Assembly: GCA_001768615.1 (NCBI GenBank)
Contig: MELE01000118.1
Location: 3,394-39,595, forward strand
Reading direction: 5' to 3'
Source: Acidobacteria bacterium RIFCSPLOWO2_12_FULL_67_14b
GTDB lineage: Bacteria > Acidobacteriota > Vicinamibacteria > Vicinamibacterales > UBA2999
DNA length: 36,202 bases
The notes under the pieces were generated by a model. The model was not told where the DNA came from and did not search any database. It saw only the letters and a program-made list of their open reading frames with translations. Within the stretch, counting starts at the first letter, position 1, and the number at the start of each line of letters is the position of its first letter. A program made the position numbers and the translations under genes. Shown in pieces: positions 1-32,862 of the stretch.

Positions 1-2260
1 GCTGGACGTCGGTTAGCATCGTGTCGTCGAGAACACGCGACACGCGATCGACGGCTTCGTCCACGGTGCAGCCAATCACGTTCAGCTCGCTCAGCAGGCC
101 TTCGCGCGGCTTGAGGTCGACGCTGACGCGGACCCTCCCAGGTGGGGACAAACCTTTCTTGTCCGCCGAAGCGCCGGGCGCGAAGGCGGAAGGTTTGTCG
201 ATGACCCGCAGGTCCTTCACCTTCGCCCGCATGCGCTTGCCGCGCACGTCGATCTCCGCCTGGTTGCCGTCGATGGCGATGACCGTGCCTTCGAGTCCCA
301 TGCCGGCAGCGACTCGCGAACCGACCTCAGGCGGGCCTGATTCAGGCGGGTCTAAAGACCCGCCTGTGCCGGGGTGCCGCAGATCCTCGACGATGCGATC
401 GATCTGCGCCCGCGCCTCCGTTCTCGCCGCGCCGGATTCGCCCGTGTTGATCGCCGCCCGCAGCGACGCCTTTTCCGCGAGCGCCTCAGACTTCTCCTTC
501 AGCTGATCGATCACCGCGTCGACGTCGCGCCGGGCCTGCCGCAGACGCTCGTCGAGCCGTTCGTTCAGGCGCTTCTTGAACACCTCTTCACGCTCGGCCA
601 GGCTGCGCTCGCGCCTGGTCAGCTCGGCGTTGGTCTCGTTGAACGCGCGCTGGTCGCGTTCGAGCTTCGTGCGCTCGGCCTCGAGCGCCCGCGCCTGCGC
701 GTCCAGGCGCGACAGGTGGGCCTGCAGTCGCTTCTGATCGTCGCTCAGGTACCCGCGCGCGGCGGCGATCACCGCCTGCGGCATGCCCAGCCGCTGCGCC
801 ATCTCGATCGCGAGGCTGCGCCCGGGCGCGCCGTAGACGAGCCGGTAGGTGGGCGCGAAGTTCAGCGGATCGAACGCGAACGCCGCCACCGTCACGCCCG
901 CCGTGCCGATGCCCCACGTCTTCACCGAATCAAAGTGCGTCGTCGCGATCACCAGCGCGCCGCGCTGGCGGAAGTGCTGAACGATCGCGGTGGCGAGCGC
1001 GCCGCCTTCGTTCGGATCGGTGCCCGTGCCGACTTCGTCGAGCAGCACGAGCGCCGGCAGCGCGAGCTCGCGGTCCATCGCCACCAGGTTCGTGATGTGC
1101 GACGAAAACGTGCTCAGGCTCGCCTCGATCGACTGTTCGTCGCCGATGTCGGCGAAGACCGCGCGGAACACGGGCAACCGGGCGGCGGCCGCCGGCACGT
1201 GGAGGCCGGCCTGGGCCATCAACGCGAACAGGCCGGCCGTCTTCAGCGCCACGGTCTTGCCGCCGGTGTTGGGGCCGGTGATCAACAACACGCGGTTGGG
1301 CGGATCGAGCAGCACGTCCACCGGCACCGGCCGCTCGAGCATGGGGTGGCGCGCGCCTTTCAGCTCCAGGCTGGTGTCGGCCGTGAACACCGGTTCGATG
1401 CCGTTCACCCTGGAGCTGTAGCGGGCGCGGGCCTGCAGCACGTCGATGTCGCGGGCCACCTGCTCGATCACCGCCAGGTCCGCGGGCCGGTGCCGGAAGC
1501 GATCGGTCAGCTCCAGCAGGATGCGGAGGACCTCCTCGCGCTCGCGGTCTTCGAGCTCGACGATGTCGTTGTTGATTTCGACGGTGGCGGCGGGCTCGAG
1601 AAACAGCGTCGCGCCGCTGGCGGAGCTGCCGTGCACGATGCCGGGCACGTTGCCGCGATGCTCGGCACGCACCATCAGCACGAAGCGGCCGTTGCGCTCG
1701 GTGACCACCTCGTCTTGCAGGTACTTCGCCGAGTCCTTGCCGCGCGTGAACTGCTCCAGCGTGCCGCGGAGCTTCTGCCGCTTCTGGCGCAGCTCGCCGC
1801 GGAGGCGTTTGAGCTCCGGACTGGCCTGGTCGAGCACCTCGCCGCCCGGATCGATTGCCTGCCGCACGGCGCCCACTTCGCCCTTGAACGAGGCGACCGC
1901 GGTGACCAGCCCGCTGAGAATGGGGAAGTCCGCGCCCGCGCGCATCACGCTCGCGCGCGTCTGATCGACCGAGTCGATGAAGTCCGCGAGCAGGCGCAGC
2001 TGCAGCGGCTCGAGCGGCCGGCCGGGGATCGCGAGCCCCTCGAGGGCGTCCGGCAGGTGCTCGCCCGCGCGCAGCGGAAAGAGCGGGTGGCGCTCGAGGA
2101 AGGAAACGGTCTCGCTGGTGCCGGCCTGGGAGGCGACGACGATCTTCGGATCCGTCGACGGCTCGAGCTCCGATAGCGCAGCCGTACCGAGCGGCGTCAA
2201 CGCCAGCGCGGTGACGGCCTCGACGATGCGATCGAATTCCAGGGTTCGTGTTGCCAGCAT
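1..2260 (-). CDS. mutS2: Endonuclease MutS2 (3' end outside window)
   Basis: MutS-family ATPase without the mismatch-recognition domain. MutS2 proteins suppress recombination in some bacteria and rescue collided ribosomes in Bacillus. The start ATG at 2258-2260 begins MLATRTLEFDRI. Seen on the minus strand: Walker A GPNTGGKT near residues 328-335, Walker B LVLLDEVGTGTD near residue 407, a long charged coiled coil after residue 500, a small beta domain, and the beginning of a C-terminal Smr domain (EAVDRVSRVLDD). The frame stays open to base 1, about 753 residues; the rest of Smr lies outside the window. Oddity: two repeat-derived, in-frame insertions, at about residues 630-648 (GTGGSLDPPESGPPEVGS) and 687-707 (starting DKPSAF and ending KKGLSPPG), flank the beta domain before Smr. 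They look like palindromic DNA elements tolerated in linkers. Family assignment is secure. Confidence 0.95.
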   Translation of the reverse strand, partial: MLATRTLEFDRIVEAVTALALTPLGTAALSELEPSTDPKIVVASQAGTSETVSFLERHPLFPLRAGEHLPDALEGLAIPGRPLEPLQLRLLADFIDSVDQTRASVMRAGADFPILSGLVTAVASFKGEVGAVRQAIDPGGEVLDQASPELKRLRGELRQKRQKLRGTLEQFTRGKDSAKYLQDEVVTERNGRFVLMVRAEHRGNVPGIVHGSSASGATLFLEPAATVEINNDIVELEDREREEVLRILLELTDRFRHRPADLAVIEQVARDIDVLQARARYSSRVNGIEPVFTADTSLELKGARHPMLERPVPVDVLLDPPNRVLLITGPNTGGKTVALKTAGLFALMAQAGLHVPAAAARLPVFRAVFADIGDEQSIEASLSTFSSHITNLVAMDRELALPALVLLDEVGTGTDPNEGGALATAIVQHFRQRGALVIATTHFDSVKTWGIGTAGVTVAAFAFDPLNFAPTYRLVYGAPGRSLAIEMAQRLGMPQAVIAAARGYLSDDQKRLQAHLSRLDAQARALEAERTKLERDQRAFNETNAELTRRERSLAEREEVFKKRLNERLDERLRQARRDVDAVIDQLKEKSEALAEKASLRAAINTGESGAARTEARAQIDRIVEDLRHPGTGGSLDPPESGPPEVGSRVAAGMGLEGTVIAIDGNQAEIDVRGKRMRAKVKDLRVIDKPSAFAPGASADKKGLSPPGRVRVSVDLKPREGLLSELNVIGCTVDEAVDRVSRVLDDTMLTDVQ
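142..200. repeat. Palindromic repeat family A, interrupted copy inside mutS2
   Basis: Perfect 10-bp arms GACAAACCTT (147-156) and AAGGTTTGTC (190-199) enclose a second inverted motif, TCCGCC...GGCGGA, related to the intergenic copy at 34148-34176. On the minus strand it is read in the mutS2 frame and starts with DKP and ends with GLSP. Other copies are at 11590-11609, 18039-18058 and 29945-29964. Confidence 0.85.
343..366. repeat. Palindromic repeat family B inside mutS2
   Basis: Perfect 11-bp arms CAGGCGGGTCT and AGACCCGCCTG around a 2-nt centre (AA). It is read in frame within mutS2 as GGSLDPPES. The near-identical intergenic palindrome at 20166-20189 shows that this is a dispersed element and not an ancestral mutS2 sequence. 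Confidence 0.9.
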
Positions 2261-2264
2261 GGAT

Positions 2265-2376
2265 CAGCCTTCAGCCTTCGGCCTTCGGCCTTCAGCTTTC
2301 GGCCTTCAGCCTTCAGCCTTCGGCATTGGGGATGCGCTGATGGCTGACGGCTGAAGGCTGACGGCTGAAGGCTGCA
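2265..2376. repeat. Inverted pair of 7-bp tandem arrays
   Basis: Nine heptads of the CAGCCTT/CGGCCTT type occupy 2265-2327. Five heptads in the opposite orientation (GGCTGAC/GGCTGAA) occupy 2342-2376, leaving a 14-nt loop. Transcribed, this would fold as a long hairpin. It separates larB from mutS2 and also encodes the last residues and stop codon of LarB. Single-orientation arrays of the same unit are at 18194-18228 and 28578-28626. Confidence 0.9.
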
Positions 2377-3127
2377 AGTGGTTGATCATGCTCGCAATAC
2401 AGCCGGCGCCGTAGCCGTTGTCGATGTTCACCACCGACACGCCGTTGGCGCACGAGTTCAGCATGCCGAGCAGCGCGGTGATGCCGCCGAAGCTGGCGCC
2501 GTAGCCGACGCTGGTCGGCACGGCGATCACCGGCACGCCGACCATGCCCGCGATCACGCTCGGCAGGGCGCCTTCCATGCCCGCCACGGCGACGATCACG
2601 CGCGCCGATTCGAGGCGCGACCGGTGCGTCAACAGCCGGTGGATGCCGGCCACGCCGATGTCGTACATCCGATCGACGGTGTTGCCCATCAGCTCGGCGG
2701 TGACGGCTGCTTCCTCCGCCACCGGCAGATCTGAGGTCCCCGCCGACGCGAGCGCGATCGTGCCGATGCCGGGCGGCACCTCACGCTTCACCGTGATGGC
2801 GCGCGCGAGCTCGTGATACTCGGCCTCCGGCACCACGGCCTTCACGGCCGACCATGCCGCCTCATCCGCACGAGTGACCAGCAGCGGATGCCCCCGGCTG
2901 ATAATCTGCGCCGCAATCGCCGCGATCTGAGCCGATGTCTTCCCGATCCCAAGAACGACCTCGGGAAAGCCCTGTCGGATGCTGCGATGGTGATCGAGCT
3001 TCGCAAACCCCAGATCCTCAAAGGGTTGGTCGCGAAGCGCGGCCAGCAGCCGCTCCACGGCGGTTGCCGTGTCGGTGCGGCCGTCGCGGACCTGCTCGAG
3101 AATGCTGCGAAGTTCTGCCGGTGTCAT
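2306..3127 (-). CDS. larB: LarB, nickel-pincer cofactor biosynthesis protein
   Basis: LarB carboxylates and hydrolyses nicotinic acid adenine dinucleotide to pyridinium-3,5-biscarboxylic acid mononucleotide, the first step in making the nickel-pincer nucleotide cofactor of lactate racemase and related LarA enzymes. The 273-residue protein has the family core: an N-terminal helical region (LGFAKLDHHR), LPVAEEA, the DIGVAGIHRL signature and a PurE-like C-terminal domain (AVAGMEGALPSVIAGMV, TSVGYG). The normal C-terminus ends near SMINHL; residues about 250-273 (LQPSAVSLQPSAIS and onward) are translated from the heptad array and are probably a neutral tail. larC, larE and larA are not in the window, so the partner genes lie elsewhere. 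Start ATG at 3125-3127. Confidence 0.9.
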   Translation of the reverse strand: MTPAELRSILEQVRDGRTDTATAVERLLAALRDQPFEDLGFAKLDHHRSIRQGFPEVVLGIGKTSAQIAAIAAQIISRGHPLLVTRADEAAWSAVKAVVPEAEYHELARAITVKREVPPGIGTIALASAGTSDLPVAEEAAVTAELMGNTVDRMYDIGVAGIHRLLTHRSRLESARVIVAVAGMEGALPSVIAGMVGVPVIAVPTSVGYGASFGGITALLGMLNSCANGVSVVNIDNGYGAGCIASMINHLQPSAVSLQPSAISASPMPKAEG

Positions 3128-3150
3128 GTGCCGCTATCGTCCGTGTTTCG

Positions 3151-3177
3151 TTGACTTTACCTACAATGGACTATAAT
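3151..3177 (+). promoter_or_regulatory. Candidate promoter for the glycosyltransferase
   Basis: TTGACT (3151-3156) and a perfect TATAAT (3172-3177) with a 15-bp spacer, shorter than the usual 17. It would give a leader of about 140 nt containing the hairpin at 3270-3292. The region lies between divergent larB and the glycosyltransferase. Confidence 0.45.
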
Positions 3178-3269
3178 GATGGACTGGACTACGGGGCCGA
3201 AACCCCCATTTCAGTGGAGCGTGTCAACGAGTCCGAAGGAACGAGCAGCGTCGCTCGGCCAACGGCTTC

Positions 3270-3292
3270 GGGCCGTTCCAACGGAACGGCCC
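3270..3292 (+). promoter_or_regulatory. Perfect hairpin in the glycosyltransferase leader
   Basis: GGGCCGTTCC (3270-3279), loop AAC, then GGAACGGCCC (3283-3292): a perfect 10-bp stem 29 nt before the start codon. No T-run follows, so it is not an obvious intrinsic terminator. It could control translation or mRNA stability, or be another dispersed palindrome. Confidence 0.6.
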
Positions 3293-3321
3293 CTGTACTT
3301 ATCGAGCATACATACCACTAG

Positions 3322-4818
3322 ATGAGCGCCGTCGAAACCCTCATACTCGCCTCGTATTTTTTTGTCCTCCTGATCCTGGCGGTCTATGGATGGCACCGGT
3401 ACTACCTGGTGTACGTCTACATGAAGCACAAGCACGAGCAGCCGGTGCCCAAGAGCACGTTCGACGAGCTGCCGGCAGTCACCATCCAGCTCCCGCTCTA
3501 CAACGAAATGTACGTCGTCGATCGGCTGCTCGATGCGGTCTGCCAGATCGACTACCCGCGCGAGAAGCTCGAGATCCAGGTGCTCGATGACTCGACCGAC
3601 GAGACCCAGCAGATCGCCGTGCTCGCCGTCCGCCGTCATGCGTTGCAGGGCATCGACATCAAGTACATCCATCGCGACGACCGCATCGGCTACAAGGCCG
3701 GCGCGCTCGACGAGGGCCTGAGGGTGGCCAGCGGCGAGTTCGTGGCGATCTTCGACGCCGATTTCATTCCCAAATCCGACTTCCTGATGCGGTCGGTGCA
3801 CTACTTCACCGATCCCAAGGTGGCGCTGGTGCAGGCGCGCTGGGGCCACGTCAACGAGGACTACTCACTGTTGACGAAGATCCAGGCCGTGCTGCTCGAC
3901 GCGCATTTCGTGCTCGAGCACGGCAGCCGCAACCGCGGCGGGTGCTTCTTCAACTTCAACGGCACCGCCGGCGTCTGGCGCCGGGACGCGATCGACGACG
4001 GCGGCGGCTGGCAGCACGACACGCTGACCGAAGACCTCGACCTCAGCTACCGCACGCAACTGCGGGGCTGGCAGTTCGTCTTCGTGCAGGATCACGTGGC
4101 GCCGGCGGAGCTCCCCGTGGAGATGAACGCGTTCAAGTCGCAGCAGCACCGCTGGGCGAAGGGATCGATCCAGACCTTCCTCAAGCTGATGCCGCGGATC
4201 CTGCGATCGGATCAGCCGTTCAAGGTGAAGGCCGAAGCGTTCTTCCACCTGTCCGCGAACTTCAACTATCCGCTGATGTGCGTCTTGTCGCTGTTGATGG
4301 CCCCGTCGATGGTCATCCGCTACAACATGGGCTGGTACGAGATGCTGCTGATCGACATCCCGCTGTTCTTCGCGGCGACGGCGTCGGTGGCGAACTTCTA
4401 CATGGTGTGCCAGCGCGAGCTCTATCCGCAGACGTGGACCGAGCGGCTGAAGTACCTGCCGCTCCTGATGTCGATCGGTATCGGCCTCGCCGTCAACAAC
4501 ACGCGGGCGGTCTTCGAGGCGCTGTTCCACAAGCCGAGCGAGTTCGTCCGCACGCCGAAGTACTGCGTCGAAGGGCAGTCAGACGAGTGGAGCGGCAAGA
4601 AGTATCGACAGTCGGTGGCCGTGCAGCCGATGATCGAGCTGGCGCTCGGCCTCTATTTCACCGCCACGCTGTTCTACGCCCTGGCCAACGGCATCTACGG
4701 CACGGTACCCTTCCTGATGCTCTTCCAGGTCGGCTTCCTCTACACCGGCATGCTCTCGCTCTTCCAGCAGTACGGCGGCGACGCCGTCGTCGAAGTCGCC
4801 CAGGGCAAGGAAGCCTAG
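3322..4818 (+). CDS. Processive family-2 glycosyltransferase (CslA / cellulose synthase-like)
   Basis: A 498-residue membrane GT2 enzyme predicted to polymerise a beta-linked hexose polysaccharide from nucleotide sugars on the cytoplasmic face and extrude it. Seen: an N-terminal hydrophobic segment (about 5-22), substrate-binding DD (89-90), DAD (145-147), TED (236-238) and QxxRW (274-278), then four or five hydrophobic segments from about 305 to the C-terminus. The order D, DxD, ED, QxxRW is the processive GT2 signature. QQHRW and the overall length fit the glucomannan synthase-like (CslA/CslC) branch better than BcsA, and there is no PilZ domain. Polymer identity cannot be read from sequence. 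The start ATG follows a TAG directly (TAGATG) and has no clear ribosome-binding site. It stands alone; the next genes face it. Confidence 0.88.
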   Translation: MSAVETLILASYFFVLLILAVYGWHRYYLVYVYMKHKHEQPVPKSTFDELPAVTIQLPLYNEMYVVDRLLDAVCQIDYPREKLEIQVLDDSTDETQQIAVLAVRRHALQGIDIKYIHRDDRIGYKAGALDEGLRVASGEFVAIFDADFIPKSDFLMRSVHYFTDPKVALVQARWGHVNEDYSLLTKIQAVLLDAHFVLEHGSRNRGGCFFNFNGTAGVWRRDAIDDGGGWQHDTLTEDLDLSYRTQLRGWQFVFVQDHVAPAELPVEMNAFKSQQHRWAKGSIQTFLKLMPRILRSDQPFKVKAEAFFHLSANFNYPLMCVLSLLMAPSMVIRYNMGWYEMLLIDIPLFFAATASVANFYMVCQRELYPQTWTERLKYLPLLMSIGIGLAVNNTRAVFEALFHKPSEFVRTPKYCVEGQSDEWSGKKYRQSVAVQPMIELALGLYFTATLFYALANGIYGTVPFLMLFQVGFLYTGMLSLFQQYGGDAVVEVAQGKEA

Positions 4819-4820
4819 CC

Positions 4821-4848
4821 AGAGTGCAGAGTTAAGAGTGCAGAGTTA
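4821..4848. repeat. 14-bp tandem duplication
   Basis: AGAGTGCAGAGTTA occurs twice back to back (4821-4834 and 4835-4848) between the convergent glycosyltransferase and vapC. The second copy supplies the vapC stop codon. Confidence 0.85.
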
Positions 4849-5235: not shown

Positions 5236-5438
5236 GGGCGGGCTTTTGTCCGGCCTCGGGTCTTGTCCAGATCGAGATCGATGTGGACCTTGCCGAAGAG
5301 CGCTTTCAGGCCCTCGACGCGGCCGCGCCGCACCACTTCCCTGAGAGCGTAGACCACCGTGTCGGTCTTGGACTTGAAGCCCAGCACGTCGCGGGCGTCT
5401 TCTACCAGGGTGTCCGGCAAATCCAATGTCGTGCGCAT
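5232..5438 (-). CDS. vapB: VapB-type antitoxin (module 1)
   Basis: A 68-residue antitoxin for the adjacent VapC. The N-terminus MRTTLDLPDTLVEDA is the ribbon-helix-helix-like start typical of VapB; the basic C-terminus should wrap the toxin. An upstream in-frame ATG at 5561 would add 41 residues with no family similarity. I reject it because a good promoter (5445-5474) lies inside that extension and ends six bases before the ATG at 5438. Antitoxins of this kind usually repress their own operon. Confidence 0.88.
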   Translation of the reverse strand: MRTTLDLPDTLVEDARDVLGFKSKTDTVVYALREVVRRGRVEGLKALFGKVHIDLDLDKTRGRTKARP

Positions 5439-5444
5439 ATGAAT

Positions 5445-10509: not shown

Positions 10510-12027
10510 ATGCGCGCAGTGTTGACGCTCGTGCTGGTTGCCGCGTTGCCGGTCGTCGCCGTGGCCCAATTGCCGCGGGACCTGGGTGCGATCGCGCGCA
10601 AGGTGCCGTCGCTCGGCGGGCTGCTCAAGGGCACGCCGCCGCTGTCGACCGACTTCGACGACACCATCGGTCAGCAGCCCATCCTCGATCGGAAGGAAAC
10701 CACGCGCCAGCCGCGTTCGATGCGCAGCCTCGCGCGCACGGGCAACGGCGCGTTCATCCTCCAGCCGGGCCTCTGGGAACAGACGTTGCAAAGTTACTGC
10801 CTGCGCGCGGGCACTTACGCGCCCGGTCAAGGCGACGGCTACCTCTACGCGCCCGCGAAGGGATCGCGGGCGGCCGCCATCCGCGCCATCCTGGCCGCGT
10901 CGGTCAATCACCCCGAGATCGTGCAGAGCGACATCCAGATGCTGCTCTGGGCGGTGCTGTCGCGCGTCAACGTGTCGAAGATGCCGCCGAAAATGCAGGC
11001 GGTGGCGCGCGTGTTGTTGCCCGCGAGCGAGATTCGCGCCATCGACGCCGACGCGCTCGAAGTGATCGGCGCCGCCGAACGCACGCGGTTGTTCCGCGGG
11101 CTGCCGGCGCCCATCAGGAAGGTGCTCGAGGTCGAATCCGATCTCCGGTACCGGTTCTACCGTGCCAACGTCAATTACGCGGAGATCGAGCGCATCGCCG
11201 TGCTGAGCGGCGTCGCTCCCGAAGACAACGCCAACAAGATTCGCCGCGGGCAGTGGTCGCGGCATCCGGGCGGGTACTACATCCGCTATTTCCCGGATTC
11301 GTTTATGAAGACCCGCGTCCAGATCCTCGTGCCCGGCCGCGTGGTTGTCACCCGGGATCGGCTGAACCGCATCATTTCGATCGAAGACAGCCGCGGTGGC
11401 AGGACCGAGACCGTGTACAACGACGCCCTCGCGCCGCGCCCGCATCCGCAGGATTCGCGGTTGAAGGCGTACCCGTTCAAGACCGTCCGCTTCACCAAGC
11501 GCGGCGCCAACGGGAAGCCGGAGGTGTTGGAGATCCACGATAAGGGCTGGACGTTCCAGCGGTCGCAGCCGCGGAACCGCCGGGCGATGGACCAACCTCG
11601 AGGTTTGTCGCCACAGCACACGCCGGTGATGCGCGTGGTGCGCGCCTCGTACACGCTCGTGCAGGACTGGTGGGATCGCTGGTTCGAGCGCGGTGAGCAG
11701 GCGCAGGAGATTCACGAGCGCTACGAGTTCTACCGCGATCGCGGCGATGCCGCGACCACCACCGGCGACGCCGATTCAGTGGACGAGCTCGAAGACCGCG
11801 ACCACTATCGCGACGGCATCGACGCGGCGACCGGTGTCGACCTCGGCGATCGGCTCGAGTGGCTCTCCGACCACCAGGAGCGCGAGAACGAAGCGCTCGA
11901 GTACGCGACCTCCGTGCTCGACGGTTTGCCGACCACGTCGACGACCGACGGCCCGGCGTGGGAGCCGGGCGACGGCCTGGGCGTGCCGTCCGGCGGCGGC
12001 CAGCGCCTGGGGATATCGGGACGGTAA
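10510..12027 (+). CDS. Secreted protein of unknown function, 505 residues
   Basis: I do not recognise the family. It has a signal peptide (1-19, ending AVAQ), a central region with a striking block LQSYCLRAGTYAP..GDGYLYAP (near 95-117), a helical region ending near residue 215, then a beta-rich part with YYIRYFPDSFMKTRVQILVPG. The acidic C-terminal part (400-460) is hydrophilic, followed by a low-complexity tail. Only one Cys (C97) is obvious in the central block. Residues 361-369 (DQPRGLSPQ) come from palindromic repeat family A and are probably a recent insertion. CAGGAG 7 nt before the ATG is a good ribosome-binding site. TACAAT at 10477-10482 may be its own -10 box, but read-through from the upstream genes is also possible. 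Confidence 0.75.
   Translation: MRAVLTLVLVAALPVVAVAQLPRDLGAIARKVPSLGGLLKGTPPLSTDFDDTIGQQPILDRKETTRQPRSMRSLARTGNGAFILQPGLWEQTLQSYCLRAGTYAPGQGDGYLYAPAKGSRAAAIRAILAASVNHPEIVQSDIQMLLWAVLSRVNVSKMPPKMQAVARVLLPASEIRAIDADALEVIGAAERTRLFRGLPAPIRKVLEVESDLRYRFYRANVNYAEIERIAVLSGVAPEDNANKIRRGQWSRHPGGYYIRYFPDSFMKTRVQILVPGRVVVTRDRLNRIISIEDSRGGRTETVYNDALAPRPHPQDSRLKAYPFKTVRFTKRGANGKPEVLEIHDKGWTFQRSQPRNRRAMDQPRGLSPQHTPVMRVVRASYTLVQDWWDRWFERGEQAQEIHERYEFYRDRGDAATTTGDADSVDELEDRDHYRDGIDAATGVDLGDRLEWLSDHQERENEALEYATSVLDGLPTTSTTDGPAWEPGDGLGVPSGGGQRLGISGR
11590..11609. repeat. Palindromic repeat family A inside the 505-residue secreted protein gene
   Basis: GACCAACCTC and GAGGTTTGTC pair at 9 of 10 positions, followed by GCCAC as in the copy near 18033. 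It is read in frame as DQPRGLSPQ. An otherwise unrelated gene carries the same peptide theme as mutS2 and the FAD/Fe-S dehydrogenase. Confidence 0.85.
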
Positions 12028-12177: not shown

Positions 12178-12275
12178 GCGACCGCCGAACCGTTCAAGAC
12201 ACGGCGTCGCCCCGCCCCGCCATCTGCGTGTGGCACGTCGGACGTCGAGGGGTGGCACATTGCCGATTGGCGATC

Positions 12276-12437
12276 GACCGATTCTGCGATTGTTGGGTGG
12301 TCGGGTGATTTCGCGACTTGGGGATTCGGATTGGCGATCGGCGGATTGATGGCCGACCAATCACTCCCTCTGCCATCCCACAAATCGAATCACCCAATCG
12401 CCACATTTTCGATCACCCAACAATCGCGCAATCGGTC
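12276..12437. repeat. MITE-like imperfect inverted repeat
   Basis: Left arm 12276-12303 (GACCGATTCTGCGATTGT and onward) and right arm 12410-12437, read on the opposite strand as GACCGATTGCGCGATTGT and onward, are both 28 bp with four mismatches or fewer. They flank a 106-bp centre containing further GATTGG/CCAATC motifs. No transposase gene lies inside. Target-site duplications could not be fixed by eye. Confidence 0.7.
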
Positions 12438-12528
12438 AATTGGCCATCGTCAATGCCCACGGCCACACCTGCTGACCGCCATGCTCGGCCGTCAGAGGTC
12501 TCGCCTCGCTGGGTTTGTCGTAACAGCG

Positions 12529-18032: not shown

Positions 18033-18064
18033 GGTGGCGACAAACCTTCAGGTTTGTCGTTACC
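18033..18064. repeat. Intergenic palindromic repeat family A
   Basis: GGTGGCGACAAACCT and AGGTTTGTCGTTACC around a 2-nt centre; the core arms at 18039-18058 pair perfectly. It starts three bases after the tricorn stop codon. It could act as a stem-loop for the 3' end of the mRNA, but no T-run follows. Confidence 0.85.
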
Positions 18065-18193
18065 GTCCGACGCTGTACAACCGCGTCTGCGTCCGCATAG
18101 GCGTCGCCCGCCTGGTAGATCTCCTTGCAGGGCGCCAGGGTGGTTCGAGCTTCGTGACGGGCCGCAGAATCGGACCCGCTCGGTCCTCGGATC

Positions 18194-18228
18194 GGCCGAA
18201 GGCTGAAGGCTGAAGGCCGAAGGCTGTA
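18194..18228. repeat. 7-bp tandem array upstream of citrate synthase
   Basis: Five heptads (GGCCGAA, GGCTGAA, GGCTGAA, GGCCGAA, GGCTGTA), the same unit as at 2265-2376. The last unit merges into the -10 box TAAGAT, so the array takes the place of a normal -35 region. Confidence 0.85.
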
Positions 18229-18232
18229 AGAT
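18227..18232 (+). promoter_or_regulatory. -10 box placed for a leaderless citrate synthase mRNA
   Basis: TAAGAT ends seven bases before the ATG at 18240. The first two bases come from the last heptad repeat. No Shine-Dalgarno sequence is visible. Confidence 0.45.
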
Positions 18233-20165: not shown

Positions 20166-20189
20166 GAGGCGGGTCTGAAGACCCGCCTC
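20166..20189. repeat. Intergenic palindromic repeat family B
   Basis: GAGGCGGGTCT and AGACCCGCCTC around GA: a perfect 11-bp stem. It is the intergenic counterpart of the copy inside mutS2 (343-366). Confidence 0.9.
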
Positions 20190-23673: not shown

Positions 23674-23730
23674 GCCGCCGATGCCCACAGTTTCTCGCGC
23701 TGTCGAATCGCGATCACATCGCGTGGGTCG

Positions 23731-25011: not shown

Positions 25012-26632
25012 GCGCCGACAGCCGATCGCGCAGTTGATACCGCTGGATCTTGCCCGTGGCCGTTTTCGGCAGCTCGCTCACGAACTCGACCCAGCGCGGC
25101 CGCTTGTATTCGGCGAGCCGCTCGCGGACGAACGCCTGCAGTTCAGCGCCGAGGGCTTCGGTCGCCGCGACGCCCGCGCGCACGACAACGCAGGCGTGAG
25201 GTTTGACGAGACCGTCCTTGTCTTCGCAGGCCACGACCGCGCATTCCTGCACGGCGGCGTGTTGCACCAGCACGTGCTCGACTTCCGTCGGGCTGACCCA
25301 GAGCCCGCCGACCTTCAGCATGTCGTCGGAGCGCCCGGCGTGCCAGAAGCAGCCGTCTTCGTCCTGGAAGTAGGTGTCGCCGGTGCGAATCCAGTGGCCG
25401 CTGATGGTCTCCTTCGTCTTCTCGTGCTGGTTCCAGTAGCCGGCGCAAATCGAGTCGCCCTTGATGTAGAGGTGGCCGACCTCACCGCGCTTCACCGGCT
25501 GTCCGCCATCGTCCAGGATGCGGGCCTCGTAGCCGGGCACCTCGACGCCGCTCGATCCCGGCTTGATCGCTCCGGGCCGGTTCGAGATGAACATGTGCAG
25601 GGTCTCGGTGGATCCAATCCCGTCGATGATCTCGATGCCGAATCGTTCCCTGAAGCGCGTGAACAGCGCCGAGGGGAGCGCTTCGCCGGCCGAGACGGCC
25701 AGGCGGACGGTCGACAAGTCGAAGTCCGGGCCGGCCTCACGGCGGTGCGACAGGAGCATCGCGTAGCTGGTCGGCACCGAGAAGAGCAGCGTCGGCCGGT
25801 GCGCCTCGATCACCGCGTAGGCGTTGCCCGGCGTGGGCGCGCCGGGGAACAGGATCGACGTCGCGCCCACGGCCAGCGGCATGTACATGGCGTTACCGAG
25901 CCCGTAGGCGAAGAACAGCTTGGGCACGCTGTAGCAGCGATCGTGTTCGGTGAGGCCGAGCACGCCCTTGGCGAACGACTCGGCGCAGACCACCATGTCG
26001 TGGTGCAGGTGGACGCAACCTTTGGGCGCGCCCGTGCTGCCCGATGAGTAGAGCCAGAACGCGGGCTCATCCTTGTTCGTGGGTGCGGCCTCGAGCTCGG
26101 GCGATCCCGCCGCGATCAAATCAGACAGGTAGAGCGGATCTTCAGATCCGCTATGGACCCCAGATCCACTATGGACACGCGATCCGCCATGGACGCCTGC
26201 ACGTCCGGAAATGATCACGTGTTCGAGGTACGGCAGCTCCGCGCGCGGGATCTTCTCGAATTCCGGCAGCAGGGCTTTGCTGATGATCAACACGCGCGAG
26301 CGCGAGTCGTTGAACACGTACTGGTAGTCGGCGGCTTTCCAGAGGGTGTTGACCGGGACGGGCACTGCGCCGATCTTGATGGCGCCGAAGAAACTCGTCG
26401 TGAAGTCCGGCGTGTCCAGCAGCAACAGCGTGACCCGTTCTTCGCGCCGCACGCCGTGGCGGTCGCGAAGCGCGCTGCCGGCGCGGTTCACGCGCTCGTA
26501 GAGATCCTGGAACGTGACACGCTCGTCGCCGCACTCGATGGCGACGCTGGCGCCGCGTCCTTCCGCGAGGTGGCGGTCGATGAAGTGCGTGGCCGCGTTG
26601 AACGTGTGCGGCAGCGACAGGTGGGCGCTCAC
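25004..26632 (-). CDS. Benzoate-CoA ligase family protein
   Basis: An acyl/aryl-CoA synthetase of 542 residues (ANL superfamily) that joins an acid to CoA with ATP through an acyl-adenylate. N-terminal FNAATHFIDRHLAEGRG and overall layout match benzoate and hydroxybenzoate-CoA ligases. Seen: P-loop YSSGSTGAPKG (195-205), GSTETLHMF, the hinge with YIKGDSICAGY and the C-terminal catalytic K528 (ATGKIQR). Residues about 147-166 are a repeat-derived insert: three 6-residue units VHGGSR, VHSGSG, VHSGSE, then DPLY, in the loop before the P-loop. The gene starts within the stop of the CoA-transferase gene (4-bp overlap) and runs into the permease gene. The substrate is inferred, not proven. Confidence 0.87.
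   Translation of the reverse strand: MSAHLSLPHTFNAATHFIDRHLAEGRGASVAIECGDERVTFQDLYERVNRAGSALRDRHGVRREERVTLLLLDTPDFTTSFFGAIKIGAVPVPVNTLWKAADYQYVFNDSRSRVLIISKALLPEFEKIPRAELPYLEHVIISGRAGVHGGSRVHSGSGVHSGSEDPLYLSDLIAAGSPELEAAPTNKDEPAFWLYSSGSTGAPKGCVHLHHDMVVCAESFAKGVLGLTEHDRCYSVPKLFFAYGLGNAMYMPLAVGATSILFPGAPTPGNAYAVIEAHRPTLLFSVPTSYAMLLSHRREAGPDFDLSTVRLAVSAGEALPSALFTRFRERFGIEIIDGIGSTETLHMFISNRPGAIKPGSSGVEVPGYEARILDDGGQPVKRGEVGHLYIKGDSICAGYWNQHEKTKETISGHWIRTGDTYFQDEDGCFWHAGRSDDMLKVGGLWVSPTEVEHVLVQHAAVQECAVVACEDKDGLVKPHACVVVRAGVAATEALGAELQAFVRERLAEYKRPRWVEFVSELPKTATGKIQRYQLRDRLSARG
26133..26197. repeat. Palindrome plus three 18-bp tandem units inside the CoA ligase gene
   Basis: A perfect palindrome AGCGGATCT-TC-AGATCCGCT (26133-26152) overlaps the first of three 18-bp units (26144-26161, 26162-26179, 26180-26197) of the pattern GATCCnCnATGGAC. 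Unit length is a multiple of three, so the ligase frame is kept and reads as VHxGSx repeats. The palindrome core resembles family B (GGGTCT/AGACCC becomes GGATCT/AGATCC). Confidence 0.9.
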
Positions 26633-27819: not shown

Positions 27820-28567
27820 CAACGGATCCGTCGGAGTGGTGACGTTCAATCGTCCCGAGGCCCGCAACGCGCTGACCTGGGACATGTATGACGCGCTGGT
27901 TGACGCCTGCAATTCGGCCGAGGCAGCCTCGGCCGTGCGCGTGCTCATCATACGCGGAGAGGGCGGCGCCTTTGCCGCCGGAACCGACATTTCGCAATTT
28001 CGCGGCTTCACGACGAGCGAGGCGGGTGTCGCTTACGAGCGGCGCCTCGACGCGGTGATCGACCGCATCGAGCGCCTGCCGATCCCGACCATCGCTGAGG
28101 TCGATGGGCCGGCGGTCGGCGGCGGCTGCGCCATCGCGATGGCGTGCGACTTCCGTATCTGCTCCGAGCGCGCGCGGTTCGGCGTGCCGGTGTCGCGGAC
28201 GCTGGGCAACTGCCTGTCGATGGCCAACCTGGCCCGGATGGTGGACCTCATCGGACCCGCGCTCACGCGGGACTTGATGCTGACGGGCCGCCTGGTCGAT
28301 GCCGATGAAGCGAGAACAGCGGGCCTCGCCACGCTCGTGTTCCCCGCGGCCGAGCTGCGGGCGGAAACGGACAAGCTCGCCGCCGAGCTCGCCACGCGCG
28401 CGCCGAGCACGATCAGGGCGACGAAGGCGATGATGCTGCGGCTGCGCGATCACCGCCGCCCGCCCGCAGGCGCCGCGGACGACCTCCTGCGCGAGTGCTA
28501 CGGCAGCGCGGAATTCCGGGAGGGCGTGGCAGCGTTCCTGGCGGGCAGAAAGCCCCGCTGGTCGTAA
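27791..28567 (+). CDS. Crotonase-fold (enoyl-CoA hydratase/isomerase family) protein lacking both hydratase glutamates
   Basis: A 258-residue crotonase-superfamily protein starting MPSSNLAWDINGSVGVVTFNRPEARNAL. CoA-binding and oxyanion-hole motifs are intact: FAAGTDIS (61-68) and GPAVGGGCAIAM (107-118). The two catalytic glutamates of true enoyl-CoA hydratases are missing: the position of rat Glu144 is A114 and that of Glu164 is V134 (FGVPVS). So it is probably not a simple hydratase; isomerase, hydrolase, decarboxylase or C-C lyase activity on a CoA thioester is more likely. It is divergent from the CoA-transferase operon, with overlapping 5' ends, which suggests shared control and a common pathway. 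Confidence 0.85.
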   Translation: MPSSNLAWDINGSVGVVTFNRPEARNALTWDMYDALVDACNSAEAASAVRVLIIRGEGGAFAAGTDISQFRGFTTSEAGVAYERRLDAVIDRIERLPIPTIAEVDGPAVGGGCAIAMACDFRICSERARFGVPVSRTLGNCLSMANLARMVDLIGPALTRDLMLTGRLVDADEARTAGLATLVFPAAELRAETDKLAAELATRAPSTIRATKAMMLRLRDHRRPPAGAADDLLRECYGSAEFREGVAAFLAGRKPRWS

Positions 28568-28577
28568 CGGTCCTCAC

Positions 28578-28626
28578 GGCCGAAGGCTGAAGGCTGAAGG
28601 CTGAAGGCCGAAGGCCGAAGGCTGCT
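28578..28626. repeat. 7-bp tandem array between convergent genes
   Basis: Seven heptads (GGCCGAA/GGCTGAA, last GGCTGCT), the same unit as at 2265-2376 and 18194-18228. It fills nearly the whole gap between the crotonase stop and the transporter stop; the last bases are part of the transporter's stop codon. Confidence 0.88.
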
Positions 28627-29899
28627 AGAACAAGATCCAGCAGATCACCGCGCCCACGATCATCATCGACAAGCCCCACGCCAGCAGCTGGTTGAACAGC
28701 TTCTTGGCGTCCGCCTCCAGCGGCAGGGCGGCGATGCACAGCGCGCCGATTGTCGACAGCGGCGACAGATCGACGAGGTGGCCGCCGACGTTCATGGACG
28801 AGGCAATCGCCATCGGGTCGGCGCCGATCGCCTTCGCGAGTCCGGGCACGGTCGGCAGAAACGCCGGCAGCACCACACCCGACGTGCTGCTGTAGACCGA
28901 CACCGCGCCGGTGACCAGCGCCATCATGAACGTCACCGTTCCCGGCGACGAGATCGTCGCCAGCATGTCGGTGAACAGATCGATGCCGCGCTGCGCCGCG
29001 AGCACGCCGATCAGCACGGTCACGCCGCACACCATCAGGATCACGCCCCACGGCATCCTCCTGATCGCCTCCTTCTCGTTGGCGGCCCCGACGAGCGACA
29101 GCAACGCGGCCCCGGTGATCGCCGCCATTCCCACGTGGGCCTTGAACTGGATCACCACCACCACCAGGGTCACCAGCACCGCCATCGTCACCCAATGCGC
29201 GGTCTGGAAGGGCTCGCACTCCACGTCGTCCATCTCGGCGCGGGCCCCGGCCTGATCCGATTGCGCCATCTCCGGGCGCACCGGCGGCTTTCGCCTGAAC
29301 AGCCGCCAGCCGCCGAACAGGAAGTACGCGGTAAAGGTGACCACGACGTGGGCGAGCAGGTTGTTCAGGTAGGTCTGCGTTTCGTGGCCGCCCAACCCGA
29401 TCTTCATCATGTTTTCGTTGACGATGATGCCGGTGGGGGCGAAGCGGGAGAGCGCGCCGGCCTGGGCGCCGTTGCCGACCATCAGTGCCATCAGGAACGG
29501 CGGCACCGCCGCCCGCCCGCCGACGGCCATCGCCATCGGCGCCATGATCGCGGTGGTGGCGATGTTGCCCGGGCCGATGCTCGACAGCCCGAGCGCGATG
29601 AAGAAGAACATGATCGGGATCACGCCGGCGCTGCCCTTGCACGCGCGGACGGCGCGGGCGGCGACGCGTCCGAGCGTGCCGTTGATGTTCGCCATCCCGA
29701 AGAGGAGTGTGACGCCGACCAGGTTGAGCAGCAGGTCGATGGGGAACGCCCCGATGACCTTGCCGAGCGGCATGCCGCCCAGGTAGACGCCGACGATCCA
29801 CGCGAACGCGAGCGACACCACGCCCACGTTGACGCTGGACACCATGCTGAGCGTAATGGCGACGATCAGGGCGGCCAGCGAAATCCACGCAAGGTTCAT
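28625..29899 (-). CDS. MatC-like dicarboxylate carrier (ArsB/NhaD-type ion transporter superfamily)
   Basis: A 424-residue integral membrane protein with about 10-12 hydrophobic segments. The N-terminus (MNLAWISLAALIVAITLS, then NVGVVSLAFAWIVGVYLGG) resembles the MatC N-terminal domain of malonate/dicarboxylate carriers. Motifs SSIGPGNIATTAIMAPMAMA and, near the C-terminus, YSSTSGVVLPAFLPTVPGL are the paired re-entrant loops typical of the superfamily. A hydrophilic loop (about 205-225) lies in the middle. It is the last gene of a three-gene operon; its ATG overlaps the stop of the FAD/Fe-S dehydrogenase (ATGA). It probably imports the 2-hydroxy acid or dicarboxylate used by that enzyme. Confidence 0.78.
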   Translation of the reverse strand: MNLAWISLAALIVAITLSMVSSVNVGVVSLAFAWIVGVYLGGMPLGKVIGAFPIDLLLNLVGVTLLFGMANINGTLGRVAARAVRACKGSAGVIPIMFFFIALGLSSIGPGNIATTAIMAPMAMAVGGRAAVPPFLMALMVGNGAQAGALSRFAPTGIIVNENMMKIGLGGHETQTYLNNLLAHVVVTFTAYFLFGGWRLFRRKPPVRPEMAQSDQAGARAEMDDVECEPFQTAHWVTMAVLVTLVVVVIQFKAHVGMAAITGAALLSLVGAANEKEAIRRMPWGVILMVCGVTVLIGVLAAQRGIDLFTDMLATISSPGTVTFMMALVTGAVSVYSSTSGVVLPAFLPTVPGLAKAIGADPMAIASSMNVGGHLVDLSPLSTIGALCIAALPLEADAKKLFNQLLAWGLSMMIVGAVICWILF

Positions 29900-32862
29900 C
29901 GGGTTTCCTCTAATTGCCGTGGGGACAAACCTGACTGCCGTGGGGACAAACCTTCAGGTTTGTCCAACAGCGACTGCAGCAGCACCGCCGGATGGACGGC
30001 GGTGACGCCGGCCAGGTCGGCCACCTGGTGGCGGCACGACGTGCCGGCCGCCACCAGCGCCTCGCCGGCCCGCAGTGCGCGCGCGGCGGGCAGCAGTGTA
30101 CGCTCGCCGATCGCCTTCGACACGTCGTAATGATCGCGGGTGTAACCGAACGACCCCGCCATGCCGCAGCAGCCGGCTTCGAGATCGATGACGGTCGCCG
30201 ACGGAATCCGCGACAGCAGCGCCCGCGCCGGCGCCGCCAGCCCCATCGATCGCTGGTGGCAGTGCGGATGCAGCAGCACCTTCGACGGACCCGGCCGCAG
30301 GGGCAGCGCCGCGCGGCCCCCGGCGCACTCGCGCTCGAGGAAGTCCTCGAACAGGACGCACGCTCCGGCCACGACCTGCGCCCGTTCCCGCGCCGGCCCT
30401 CGCAGCAGTGCGGGCGCGTCTTCCGTCATCGCCGACAAGCAGCTGGGCTCGACAAAGACGATGGCCTCGCCGCGGTTCGCGGCGTCGAAGAGGGCGTTCA
30501 CGGTGTCGAAGGCCAGCCGCCGCGCATCGGCGAGAAAGCCCTGCGAGATGAGCGGTCTTCCGCAGCAGCCGTGCGGCACCAGCCGCGTGCCGATGCCGGC
30601 CGCCTCGAGCACGTCCATAGCCGCCACCCCGATTTCCGGATCGGAGTAATTCGTGAAGGTGTCAGTGAAGAGCACGACGTTGGTTGCAGGGCTCGCTGTA
30701 GGGCGCCCCTTTATGGGGCGCCGGCCTGCCCGCCGTGATAGGCGCCGCCGCAAGGTGTTCGACGTCCACGCCGGCAACGTCCGCCGCCGATCGATCCCGA
30801 GCAGCTGCTCGTTGATCCACCGGCCCGGCCCGCTCCTCATCACCGCGTTCGCTACCGGCGCCAGCCGGCTGCCCCATTCCGCCGCCGACCGCGCGTTGCC
30901 AAACGCGCGCGCCTGCGCCGTCGTGCGATGGCGCTCCCAGTATCCGGAGAGGAATTCGCTCTTGTAGCGCGCCACGTCCACGCCGACCGGGCACTCGGAC
31001 TTGCAGGCCCGGCACTCCAGGCAGAGATCGAGGACGCCGAGCACGCCGTCGTCGCTGAGGCCCGCCTCGCCGAGCCGCCCGGTCATCGCCAGGCGCAGCA
31101 CGTTGGCGCGGCCGCGCGTGGAATGCGCTTCATCCCGCGTGACCATGAACGACGGGCACATCGTGCCTTCGCGCGTCTTGCGGCACAGGCCCACGCCGCT
31201 GCACATCTCGACGGCGCGCCCGAAGCCGCCGTGCTCGGAGAAATCGAAGACGGTGGCGGGCGACGGCGTTTCGTATGACGGGCCGTAGCGGAGGTGCGAC
31301 GTGATGGGCGGCGTGTCGACGATGCGGCCGGGGTTGAAGAGGCCCTGGGGATCGAAGGCCGCCTTGACCTGCCGGAACGCCTGGTACAACTCGGAGCCGA
31401 ACATCTTCTCGTTGAAGGCCCCGCGCACGAGCCCGTCGCCGTGCTCGCCCGACAGCGCGCCGCCGAACTCGAGCACCAGGTCGGCGACCTCGTTGGCGAT
31501 GGCCTCGAACTTCGCCACGCCATCGGCGGTCTTGAGATCGATCACGGGACGCACGTGCAGGCAGCCGACCGACGCGTGCGCGTAGACGCCCGCGATGGTG
31601 TGATGGCGCCGGACAATTCCGGTGAAGCGCTCGATGTAGTCGCGCAGCTTCTCCGGCGCGACCGCGGTGTCTTCGACGAACGAGATGGCCTTGCCGTCGC
31701 CCTTCATCGCCGTCGACAGTCCGAGGGCGGCCTCGCGGAAGCTCCACACCCGCTGCTGCGCGACCGCATCGAGGATGCGGCGGCAGCGGCACGGCACCCC
31801 CGCGCCACGCAGGTCGCGCTCGAGCGCGTCGAGCTTACCGGCCAGCTCGTCCTGGCGATCGCCGTAGAACTCCACGCACAGCAGCGCCGAGCCGTCGCGT
31901 TCGACCATCGATCGCCGTTGCGCCTCGAGCGCCGGGTGCGCCTTGGCGTGCCGGAGGATGAAGTCGTCCATCACCTCCACCGCCGACGGGCCGTGCGTCA
32001 ACACGAGCGGCGTGGCGCCCAGCGCGTCGAGCAGCTCGTCGAACTCGATCGTCAGCACCGCCTTGGCCGCCGGCAGGGGCACGAGGCCGATCGTGGCGTC
32101 GACAATGAAGCCGAGCGTGCCTTCCGAGCCGACGAGGATCCTGGTCAAGTCGACGGGCCTGGCCGAATCCACGAACGCATCGAGGTTGTAGCCGCCGACG
32201 CGGCGGAGCACCTTGGGGAACCGGCGCTCGATCTCGGGCGCGTGACGCGCCGCCAGATCCGTGACCGCACGATAGGCCCGCGCCTCGAGCCCGTCGCCCG
32301 CCCGCGCGCGTTGCAGCTCGCCTGCGGCCAGCGGCCGGAAGTGGGCGAGGCTGCCGTCGGACAACACCACGCGCTGTTCGCGGACGTGGTCGATGGTCTT
32401 GCCGTAGAGCACCGATCGCGCGCCGCTCGAGTTGTTCGCCATCATGCCGCCCACCGTGGCCCGGCTCGCCGACGACACGTCGGGAGCGAAGCGGAGGTGG
32501 TGCGGCCGCAGCACGGCGTTGAGGTCGTCGAGCACGACCCCCGGCTCGACGCGGGCCCAGCGCTCGTCGGGGTTGATCGCGATGATGCGGTTCAGATGCT
32601 TGGAGGTGTCGAGCACGAGGCCGGCGCCAATCGACTGGCCGGCCTGCGAGGTGCCGCCGCCCCTTGGCGTGATCGGCACGCCGTAATGCGCGGCGATGTG
32701 CACGGCGCGCGCCACGGCTTCGGCCGACCGCGGAATCACGACGCCGAGCGGCTCGATCTGGTAGACGCTGGCGTCGGTCGAATAGAGCGCGCGCGACACC
32801 TTGTCGAAGCGCACCTCGCCGTCGATTGCGCCTTCGAGCTCGCGCCGCAGGGACTCGCTCAT
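29896..32862 (-). CDS. FAD/Fe-S 2-hydroxyacid dehydrogenase (YdiJ / GlcD-GlcF fusion type)
   Basis: A 988-residue fusion of a GlcD-like flavoprotein with a GlcF-like iron-sulfur protein, as in D-lactate, glycolate and D-2-hydroxyglutarate dehydrogenases. Seen: FAD-binding PRGGGTSQAGQSIGAGLVLD (about 66-85), VGSEGTLGFI, and SGEHGDGLVRG; two ferredoxin-type clusters (CSGVGLCRKTREGTMCPS and CLECRACKSECP); and two cysteine-rich CCG motifs (HGCCGRPL, GCCGMAG). It should oxidise a D-2-hydroxy acid and feed electrons to the quinone pool. Start at ATG 32860-32862 (MSESLRRELEG), two bases after the upstream gene. Oddities: a repeat-derived linker near residues 713-726 (GRRPIKGRPTASPA) between the two halves, and a repeat-derived C-terminus (967-988, DKPEGLSPRQSGLSPRQ and onward). 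Confidence 0.88.
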   Translation of the reverse strand: MSESLRRELEGAIDGEVRFDKVSRALYSTDASVYQIEPLGVVIPRSAEAVARAVHIAAHYGVPITPRGGGTSQAGQSIGAGLVLDTSKHLNRIIAINPDERWARVEPGVVLDDLNAVLRPHHLRFAPDVSSASRATVGGMMANNSSGARSVLYGKTIDHVREQRVVLSDGSLAHFRPLAAGELQRARAGDGLEARAYRAVTDLAARHAPEIERRFPKVLRRVGGYNLDAFVDSARPVDLTRILVGSEGTLGFIVDATIGLVPLPAAKAVLTIEFDELLDALGATPLVLTHGPSAVEVMDDFILRHAKAHPALEAQRRSMVERDGSALLCVEFYGDRQDELAGKLDALERDLRGAGVPCRCRRILDAVAQQRVWSFREAALGLSTAMKGDGKAISFVEDTAVAPEKLRDYIERFTGIVRRHHTIAGVYAHASVGCLHVRPVIDLKTADGVAKFEAIANEVADLVLEFGGALSGEHGDGLVRGAFNEKMFGSELYQAFRQVKAAFDPQGLFNPGRIVDTPPITSHLRYGPSYETPSPATVFDFSEHGGFGRAVEMCSGVGLCRKTREGTMCPSFMVTRDEAHSTRGRANVLRLAMTGRLGEAGLSDDGVLGVLDLCLECRACKSECPVGVDVARYKSEFLSGYWERHRTTAQARAFGNARSAAEWGSRLAPVANAVMRSGPGRWINEQLLGIDRRRTLPAWTSNTLRRRLSRRAGRRPIKGRPTASPATNVVLFTDTFTNYSDPEIGVAAMDVLEAAGIGTRLVPHGCCGRPLISQGFLADARRLAFDTVNALFDAANRGEAIVFVEPSCLSAMTEDAPALLRGPARERAQVVAGACVLFEDFLERECAGGRAALPLRPGPSKVLLHPHCHQRSMGLAAPARALLSRIPSATVIDLEAGCCGMAGSFGYTRDHYDVSKAIGERTLLPAARALRAGEALVAAGTSCRHQVADLAGVTAVHPAVLLQSLLDKPEGLSPRQSGLSPRQLEETR
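29921..29964. repeat. Palindromic repeat family A, one and a half copies, at the end of the dehydrogenase gene
   Basis: A perfect palindrome GACAAACCT-TC-AGGTTTGTC (29945-29964) with a preceding half copy GGGGACAAACCT (29921-29932). Together they encode the last residues of the dehydrogenase: DKPEGLSP followed by a second GLSP. Confidence 0.9.
30702..30722. repeat. Palindrome family C inside the dehydrogenase gene
   Basis: GGCGCCCC (30702-30709), loop TTTAT, GGGGCGCC (30715-30722). It is read in frame as GRRPIKGRP and lies exactly in the linker between the ferredoxin domain and the CCG half. Confidence 0.75.

What the first reader, a model, noticed from the sequence alone, without database searches (positions are those of the whole stretch)
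142..29964. A dispersed palindrome encodes a DKPxGLSP-like peptide in three unrelated proteins
The palindrome GACAAACCT/AGGTTTGTC (family A) occurs between genes at 18039-18058 and inside three CDSs: mutS2 (142-200), the 505-residue secreted protein (11590-11609) and the FAD/Fe-S dehydrogenase (29945-29964). In all three it is read in the same orientation and phase, giving DKP...GLSP, DQPRGLSP and DKPEGLSP. Two copies sit in linkers and one forms a C-terminus. This parallels the Rickettsia palindromic elements that enter genes in frame. The shared phase suggests selection for a harmless, soluble peptide, since other phases or the other strand would bring different residues or stops.
Basis: partly seen in the sequence, partly recalled or inferred. 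Interest (0 to 1): 0.85.

Follow-up and report, generated by a model that had tools for sequence, protein, structure and literature searches.

The report
Mobile hairpin read in one frame
A short, probably mobile DNA hairpin has spread into many genes of a bacterium and its relatives, and almost every copy found inside a gene is read so that it adds the same kind of soft, water-loving peptide whichever way round it sits, which suggests that proteins tolerate it in only one reading phase.

Summary
The palindrome is a REP element: a GT(G/A)G head plus a hairpin. The unnamed host genome has 91 perfect copies; I read 90. A 59-nt sister form sits in mutS2.

Pooling short, imperfect and long copies from three species, 84 of 85 intragenic copies are read in one codon phase. 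It gives GGDKPxGLS or DKPxGLSP, in either orientation. All six frames of the long form are stop-free, yet 23 of 23 use this phase. GTRG heads native to genes would place it there only 4-6% of the time. At several sites relatives lack the insert. In GcvP and IleRS, different species carry different REP families in the same loop.

Best explanation: a REP inserts widely and selection keeps in-gene copies in the one phase that yields a hydrophilic, disorder-prone linker. The short form's depletion from genes fits; the long form (14 of 15 copies in genes) does not fit simple uniform insertion. The mobilising enzyme is not identified. Intragenic REPs and Rickettsia palindromic elements are known, so this is a new variant of a known kind.

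The parts
142..200 (+). Long REP element (head GTGGG 142-146, 53-nt hairpin 147-199), antisense inside mutS2, read DKPSAFAPGASADKKGLSP
2..2260 (-). mutS2 host gene (runs off the window)
343..366 (-). Second REP-like palindrome (family B core AGGCGGGTCTTTAGACCCGCCT) in mutS2, read TGGSLDPPES
11589..11614 (-). Short REP, one arm mismatch (palindrome 11590-11609, head 11610-11614), antisense in the secreted protein, read DQPRGLSP
   Evidence: 9-residue insert absent in the two relatives compared
10510..12027 (+). 505-residue host protein gene (no Pfam match at E<=0.001)
18034..18059 (+). Short REP between genes (head GTGGC 18034-18038, palindrome 18039-18058)
29919..29932 (+). Partial repeat (head plus first arm) 21 nt before the full copy
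29940..29965 (+). Short REP (head GTGGG, palindrome 29945-29964), antisense near the end of the dehydrogenase gene, read DKPEGLSP
29896..32862 (-).
26133..26152 (.). Another CTTYAG-centred palindrome in a gene in the same centre phase (SGSEDPLY)

Best explanation
It is a REP (repetitive extragenic palindrome) family: GT(G/A)G(C/G) head, then GACAAACCT-TY-AGGTTTGTC, with a 59-nt long form. It is probably moved as single-stranded hairpin DNA by a RAYT (Y1/HUH) transposase (inferred from its kind only). It lands in both orientations, in and between genes. Inside genes, copies persist when the insert keeps the frame and is read in one phase. Because the palindrome's length is 2 modulo 3, that one phase gives the same kind of hydrophilic, disorder-prone peptide from either strand. 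Other phases give stop codons or peptides with Arg, Cys and aromatic residues and are removed by selection. Shown: family, head, one phase, absence from relatives at several sites, frame-keeping repeats. Inferred: mobility, the enzyme, selection as the cause, tolerance of the proteins.
For: 91 perfect copies in the own genome, reversed-pattern control 0; 90 read; head on exactly one side in 87 of 90; the bases flanking the palindrome pair as C..G in 45 and G..C in 40 of 90. Phase: 39 of 40 perfect intragenic copies; 7 of 7 distinct places with 1-3 mismatches, five of them beside a counted perfect copy; 15 of 15 in two congeneric species; 23 of 23 long copies, although the long consensus is stop-free in all six frames. 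Chance of 39 or more of 40: 1.2e-13 among stop-free phases, 1.7e-42 if insertion followed native GT[AG]G[CG]. Partial repeats beside copies have periods divisible by 3 in 24 of 24 cases inside genes and 13 of 22 outside, P=0.00045. Relatives lack the insert in the secreted protein (2 of 2 compared), dehydrogenase (G005, G008) and IleRS (8 of 8 lack the family-A insert). Short-copy density is 5.9-9.2 times lower in genes; 40 of 90 in genes fits 1/9 survival (0.449). Hosts include IleRS, PriA, GcvP and PurH.
Against: In the own genome 14 of 15 long copies are in genes, more than uniform insertion with 1/3 (P=0.04) or 1/9 (P=0.0001) survival predicts. No Y1 transposase gene is flanked by family-A copies; for the syntenic RAYTs of G000 and G001 the nearest are about 0.7 kb away. 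The RAYT clade of those two genes is found in 5 of 6 genomes with family A but also in G008, which has none, and not in G002, which has 18 copies: no significant link. One perfect copy is in another phase, in an interdomain linker. One G001 copy has an in-frame TGA. At L034 three relatives carry a similar G(S/A/G)(D/N)QPSxL peptide, so that site may not be a recent insertion; in BCAT the loop of three relatives is only 1-3 residues shorter. Other REP families show 3 exceptions of 25, and GTCCGGCTTTAGCCGGAC in GcvP of G004 has another centre phase. Three rows with 4 mismatches lie in genes, two in another phase, but such hits are near chance number (5 against 2 in a shuffle).
Confidence: 0.7

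Rival explanations
1. The phase is set at insertion: the enzyme chooses targets that have a fixed relation to the reading frame, so little selection is needed.
For: The bias is almost total (84 of 85), and long copies are not depleted from genes in the own genome (14 of 15), which selection alone does not predict.
Against: Native GT[AG]G[CG] in genes would give this phase only 6.3% (sense) or 3.8% (antisense) of the time. The empty IleRS sites of four relatives read at DNA level have no GTGG at the place. Both orientations obey the rule although their frames differ on the DNA.
Confidence: 0.13
2. The long form is a gene-adapted lineage: it is copied or kept mainly in genes because in-frame copies are hard to delete, while intergenic copies are lost.
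For: In the own genome 14 of 15 long against 40 of 90 short copies lie in genes, P=0.0004; all 29 long copies read are exactly 53 nt between their ends.
Against: Small numbers; in G001 5 of the 14 long copies read were outside called genes, one of these inside a helicase by alignment.
Confidence: 0.1
3. It is a DNA-level recognition motif, such as an uptake sequence, that codon choice accommodates.
For: Uptake sequences occur in genes with frame preferences (recalled); isolated 9-nt halves more than 250 bp from a perfect palindrome number 16 against 1.2 expected.
Against: 203 of 219 halves lie within 250 bp of a perfect palindrome in stretches chosen around palindromes; GTRG head; insertions absent in relatives; perfect palindrome in 6 of 9 genus genomes and 0 of 51 others.
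Confidence: 0.03
4. The hairpin is skipped by the ribosome (translational bypass), so its sequence is never translated.
For: Bypassed palindromes exist in a yeast mitochondrion (passage seen in PMC6649704). One G001 copy carries an in-frame TGA.
Against: Bypass would not need one codon phase, open frames or partial repeats in multiples of three.
Confidence: 0.02

Closest known systems
REP elements with GT(A/G)G head and RAYTs (Nunvar 2010, PMC2817692, passages seen)
   Same: Head, short hairpin, about 100 copies, compensating stem variants, Y1 transposase genes in the genome
   Different: No RAYT flanked by two inverted copies was found for this family; a large share of copies is inside genes
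Intragenic GTAG/CGTC REPs (PMC3733652; passages and part 1 of 2 of the Discussion seen; supplement not read)
   Same: REPs wholly within genes, many in replication and repair genes; REP ends supply stop codons; different REPs at about the same place in recB of two Xanthomonas species; GTGG heads in O. terrae
   Different: In the text seen there is no account of a single reading phase, the same peptide from both strands, or several REP families sharing one loop in several genes; its list of REP-encoded residues is in a supplement that I could not read
Rickettsia palindromic elements (reviews PMC2229807 and PMC10969869, passages; primary papers not held)
   Same: Palindromes inserted in frame in many unrelated genes, each family encoding a conserved peptide
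   Different: 105-150 nt in those reviews against 26 or 59 nt here; no GTRG head mentioned in the passages seen. PMC3733652 counts the shorter RPE-4 and RPE-6 as CGTC REPs
Coding palindromes of nematomorph mitochondria (PMC6649704, passages)
   Same: Inverted repeats translated inside genes
   Different: Arms encode conserved residues of the host protein; not a dispersed element family

Membership tests
REP | Short hairpin with GT(A/G)G at one end only | tested here: met
   87 of 90 copies; hairpin with a 9-bp stem and free four-base head in the fold
REP | High copy number in one genome | tested here: met
   91 perfect copies; 114 in G001
REP | Mainly extragenic | tested here: inconclusive
   Density 5.9-9.2 times higher outside genes, yet 40 of 90 copies are inside; long form 14 of 15 inside
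RAYT-REP pair (REPtron) | Y1/HUH transposase gene in genomes with the REP | tested here: met
   5 PF01797 matches in the own genome and matches in 9 of 9 genus genomes, also in the 3 without family A, so presence alone is not diagnostic
RAYT-REP pair (REPtron) | A particular RAYT lineage tracks the REP | tested here: inconclusive
   First tree of 30 proteins suggested 5 of 6 against 0 of 3 genomes, P=0.048. With 13 more, the clade is in 5 of 6 with and 1 of 3 without family A, P about 0.23 by hand
RAYT-REP pair (REPtron) | RAYT gene flanked by two inverted cognate REPs | tested here: not met
   13 RAYT loci scanned; no flanking pair of family-A copies. Met instead by family C around the RAYTs of L186 and L071
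Rickettsia palindromic element | 105-150 nt element family of Rickettsia | tested here: not met
   26 or 59 nt; perfect palindrome in 0 of 51 genomes searched outside this genus; Rickettsia itself was not searched
Rickettsia palindromic element | In-frame insertion encoding a conserved peptide in unrelated genes | tested here: met
   84 of 85 copies in one phase
REP mobility | Excision and insertion by the transposase | not testable with these tools
   Only filled and empty sites were compared

The most novel reading that the evidence does not exclude
Several unrelated REP families in this genus have converged on one coding design: a CTTYAG-centred hairpin whose one tolerated phase yields the same soft linker peptide from both strands. 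Flexible protein loops (GcvP, IleRS, the MutS2 linker) act as shared, repeatedly recolonised landing sites for rival REP families in different species. The long form is in effect a mobile in-frame linker module that lives mainly inside genes.
Probability: 0.35. Interest if true: 0.85.

Novelty: new variant of a known kind. Interest (0 to 1): 0.72.

Why it matters
It turns an anecdote (REPs or RPEs found inside genes) into a quantitative rule that can be tested: one reading phase, both strands, more than one REP family. It offers a natural experiment on which short peptides proteins accept in their loops. It also suggests a route by which mobile DNA lengthens loops of housekeeping proteins such as IleRS, GcvP and PurH.

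Tried and rejected
Stop codons alone as the cause: rejected, because the long consensus is open in all six frames and its 23 intragenic copies still use one phase. Target choice at native GTRG: rejected, since it predicts the opposite bias. A conserved protein motif: rejected by empty sites. A clean REPtron for family A: not found.

A claim that I withdrew: a first tree of 30 RAYT proteins put one clade only in genomes with family A. Thirteen of the 44 matches had not entered that tree (12 without a locus, one not recovered). I fetched the 12, added all 13 and rebuilt the tree: a G008 protein falls in the clade although G008 has no family A, and G003 has a sister-group member.

Led little or nowhere: the related-loci scan with a 5-RAYT alignment returned 80 distant RAYTs from many phyla but none that names the host; I used them no further. 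PDB alignments show a clean gap at the insert for IleRS, BCAT and the acyl-CoA synthetase and a small one for GcvP. They are uninformative for PriA and MutS2 (site not aligned), ragged for GGT, and show no gap for the pseudouridine synthase. My first RAYT gene calls failed, as the codon model calls few of these genes; I then used open frames and a profile.

Limits: gene calls are from my own codon model, trained on the own genome and also used on the relatives. Of 40 submitted hosts (39 of the 40 perfect-copy hosts plus the secreted protein), 37 have a Pfam match. Copies in one gene, and orthologues, are not independent.

Full report
What is there. The palindrome is GACAAACCT-NN-AGGTTTGTC. One search found 13 arm matches (up to one mismatch) in the window against 3.28 in shuffles. 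In the whole genome (5.31 Mb, 258 contigs, unnamed) there are 91 perfect copies with a spacer of 0-8 and none for the reversed control. I fetched 74 stretches, 72 around copies and 2 around transposase genes, and read 90 of the 91, two of them in the window. Each copy has a direction: GT(G/A)G plus one base stands before the palindrome on exactly one side in 87 of 90. The bases just outside the palindrome pair as C..G in 45 copies and G..C in 40, with 5 exceptions. So there are 10 complementary positions in two subfamilies. As single-stranded DNA it folds as a hairpin of 9 pairs with the four-base head free. This is the anatomy of a REP element as described in PMC2817692 (passages seen).

The mutS2 copy. 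Window 142-200 is a longer sister: the same head and the same ends, with 53 nt from GAC to GTC. Within three mismatches the own genome has 15 copies, G001 24, G002 2, G005 1 and the other five genomes of the genus none. I read all 15 of the own genome and 14 in G001 (one of these 14 lies beyond the limit).

Reading phase. I called genes with a codon model trained on the fetched sequence; coding fraction 0.88. Of the 90 perfect copies, 40 lie wholly in a gene, 18 overlap a gene edge and 32 lie between genes. Of the 40, 25 sense and 14 antisense copies are read GAC AAA CCT nnn GGT TTG TCn (DKPxGLS), and one is in another phase. In 8 of the 18 edge copies the REP itself supplies the stop codon of the gene, in another phase. 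Copies with 1-3 mismatches: 7 of 7 distinct places in genes (8 rows, one place seen twice) are in the same phase; five of the seven lie beside a perfect copy that is already counted. Five hits with 4 mismatches (shuffle: 2) are near chance; of the three rows in genes, two are in another phase, and I did not count them. In congeners: G002 7 of 7 (18 copies read of 18) and G001 8 of 8 (20 read of 114); of 3 read in G005 (of 4) none is wholly inside a gene. Long copies: 23 of 23 in genes, 10 sense (GDKPFLSAEAPGAKAEGLS) and 13 antisense (DKPSAFAPGASADKKGLSP). Sum: 84 of 85, or 79 of 80 without the five neighbours.

Controls. Given the stop-free phases of each copy, 39 or more of 40 has P=1.2e-13. 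If insertion followed native GT[AG]G[CG] in genes, this phase would be the rarest (6.3% sense, 3.8% antisense) and P=1.7e-42. The long consensus has no stop in any of six frames, so stop codons do not explain its bias ((1/3)^23 = 1e-11). Partial repeats of the element beside a copy have periods divisible by three in 24 of 24 cases inside genes and 13 of 22 outside; two outside pairs of full copies are counted from both ends (P=0.00045).

Insertion or descent. The secreted protein of the two relatives compared lacks 9 residues; the dehydrogenase of G005 and G008 runs SLL-EETR where the own copy has 18 more residues. The family-A insert of IleRS is missing in 8 of 8 relatives, five of them with a plain short loop. 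In a helicase (L065) five of seven relatives compared have a short loop, G001 the long form and G002 a related GDTPLGLS peptide. Not all sites are so clean: at L034 three relatives have a similar peptide, and the BCAT loop of three relatives is only 1-3 residues shorter, with other residues. PDB relatives of IleRS, BCAT and an acyl-CoA synthetase have a gap there. Hosts include IleRS, PriA, CinA, GcvP, a GCV_T-domain protein, a pseudouridine synthase, PurH and a phosphoglucomutase/phosphomannomutase.

Other REP families in the same loops. The GcvP loop could be compared in seven of nine genomes. It holds family A in G000 and G001, GTCCGGCTTTAGCCGGAC in G004 (another centre phase), and family-C-like palindromes in G006, G007 and G008; in G003 it is short. 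In IleRS the same loop holds A in G000 and C-type copies in G004, G006 and G008. The MutS2 linker holds A-long plus B in G000, A-long in G001, AGGCAACCCTTCAGGGTTGCCT in G004 and two B-like copies in G007, among others. Among palindromes of other families with a CTTYAG centre, 22 of 25 in genes have the same centre phase as family A; two of the 22 are A-like variants, one of these also counted above, and some are orthologues of one another. Palindromes with another centre show 12 of 25. Within three mismatches family B has 9 of 12 in that phase; family C has clear exceptions such as L078.

Mechanism. The own genome has five Y1_Tnp matches and all nine genus genomes have some. The RAYTs of G000 C48 and G001 C1 are syntenic with each other, but family-A copies lie about 0.7 kb away, not at their ends. 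Their clade occurs in G000, G001, G004, G005 and G006, all with family A, but also in G008 without it, and not in G002 with 18 copies. So RAYT mobilisation is likely by kind and not shown. Family C does flank a different RAYT in the classic way: in L186 13 copies in one direction on one side and 6 inverted on the other; in L071 three on one side and one inverted on the other.

Why one phase. In that phase the peptide is rich in D, K, P, S and G, without Cys or Arg. The other phases give WRQTFRFV, VATNLQVC, TNLKVC or Arg-rich peptides. Family B has a second phase that is also fairly hydrophilic (EAGLQTR), seen twice. This fits selection on the peptide better than a rule of insertion. Short copies are 5.9-fold (intergenic only) to 9.2-fold (with edge copies) less dense in genes. 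With edge copies counted as outside, 40 of 90 is what survival of 1/9 predicts (0.449). Long copies do not fit: 14 of 15 in genes in the own genome (P=0.04 under 1/3 survival, 0.0001 under 1/9). Longer retention in genes, or biased insertion, must be added; this remains unexplained.

What is known. Intragenic REPs and RPEs are in print (PMC3733652, PMC2229807, PMC10969869; parts seen). The searches brought no paper, as far as I read the listings and passages, that reports a single reading phase for REPs or this family. The supplement of PMC3733652, which lists REP-encoded residues, and the primary Rickettsia papers could not be read.

Noticed in passing
window 2264-2378, 18188-18230, 28572-28628: Tandem heptamer-like repeats (GGCTGAAGGCCGAAGGC) in three places; similar stretches match elsewhere in the own genome and in a few others of the genus.
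   Followed up: no
window 12258-12303 and 12410-12455: Inverted repeat of 46 nt, 83% complementary, 106 nt apart, between two called genes.
   Followed up: no
L186 (G008) and L071 (G000): RAYT genes flanked by inverted copies of another REP family (GGAG-AGCGACGGCTTYAGCCGTCGCT): 13 and 6 in L186, 3 and 1 in L071, a classic RAYT-REP arrangement.
   Followed up: partly
L131:8477-8586 (G000 C47): A roughly 110-nt repeat with many matches in the own genome, on both strands at the same places.
   Followed up: no
L118 (G001), end of the dehydrogenase gene: In G001 the same place carries a larger insert with the same ends, DKP-DRLRQGYGESAEALRAKA-EGLSP, apparently another composite element.
   Followed up: no
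L164 (G001): A copy with a TG spacer puts an in-frame TGA in an acyl-CoA synthetase gene: a broken gene or a sequence error.
   Followed up: no
window 20166-20189: A family-B palindrome (GAGGCGGGTCTGAAGACCCGCCTC) outside called genes.
   Followed up: no
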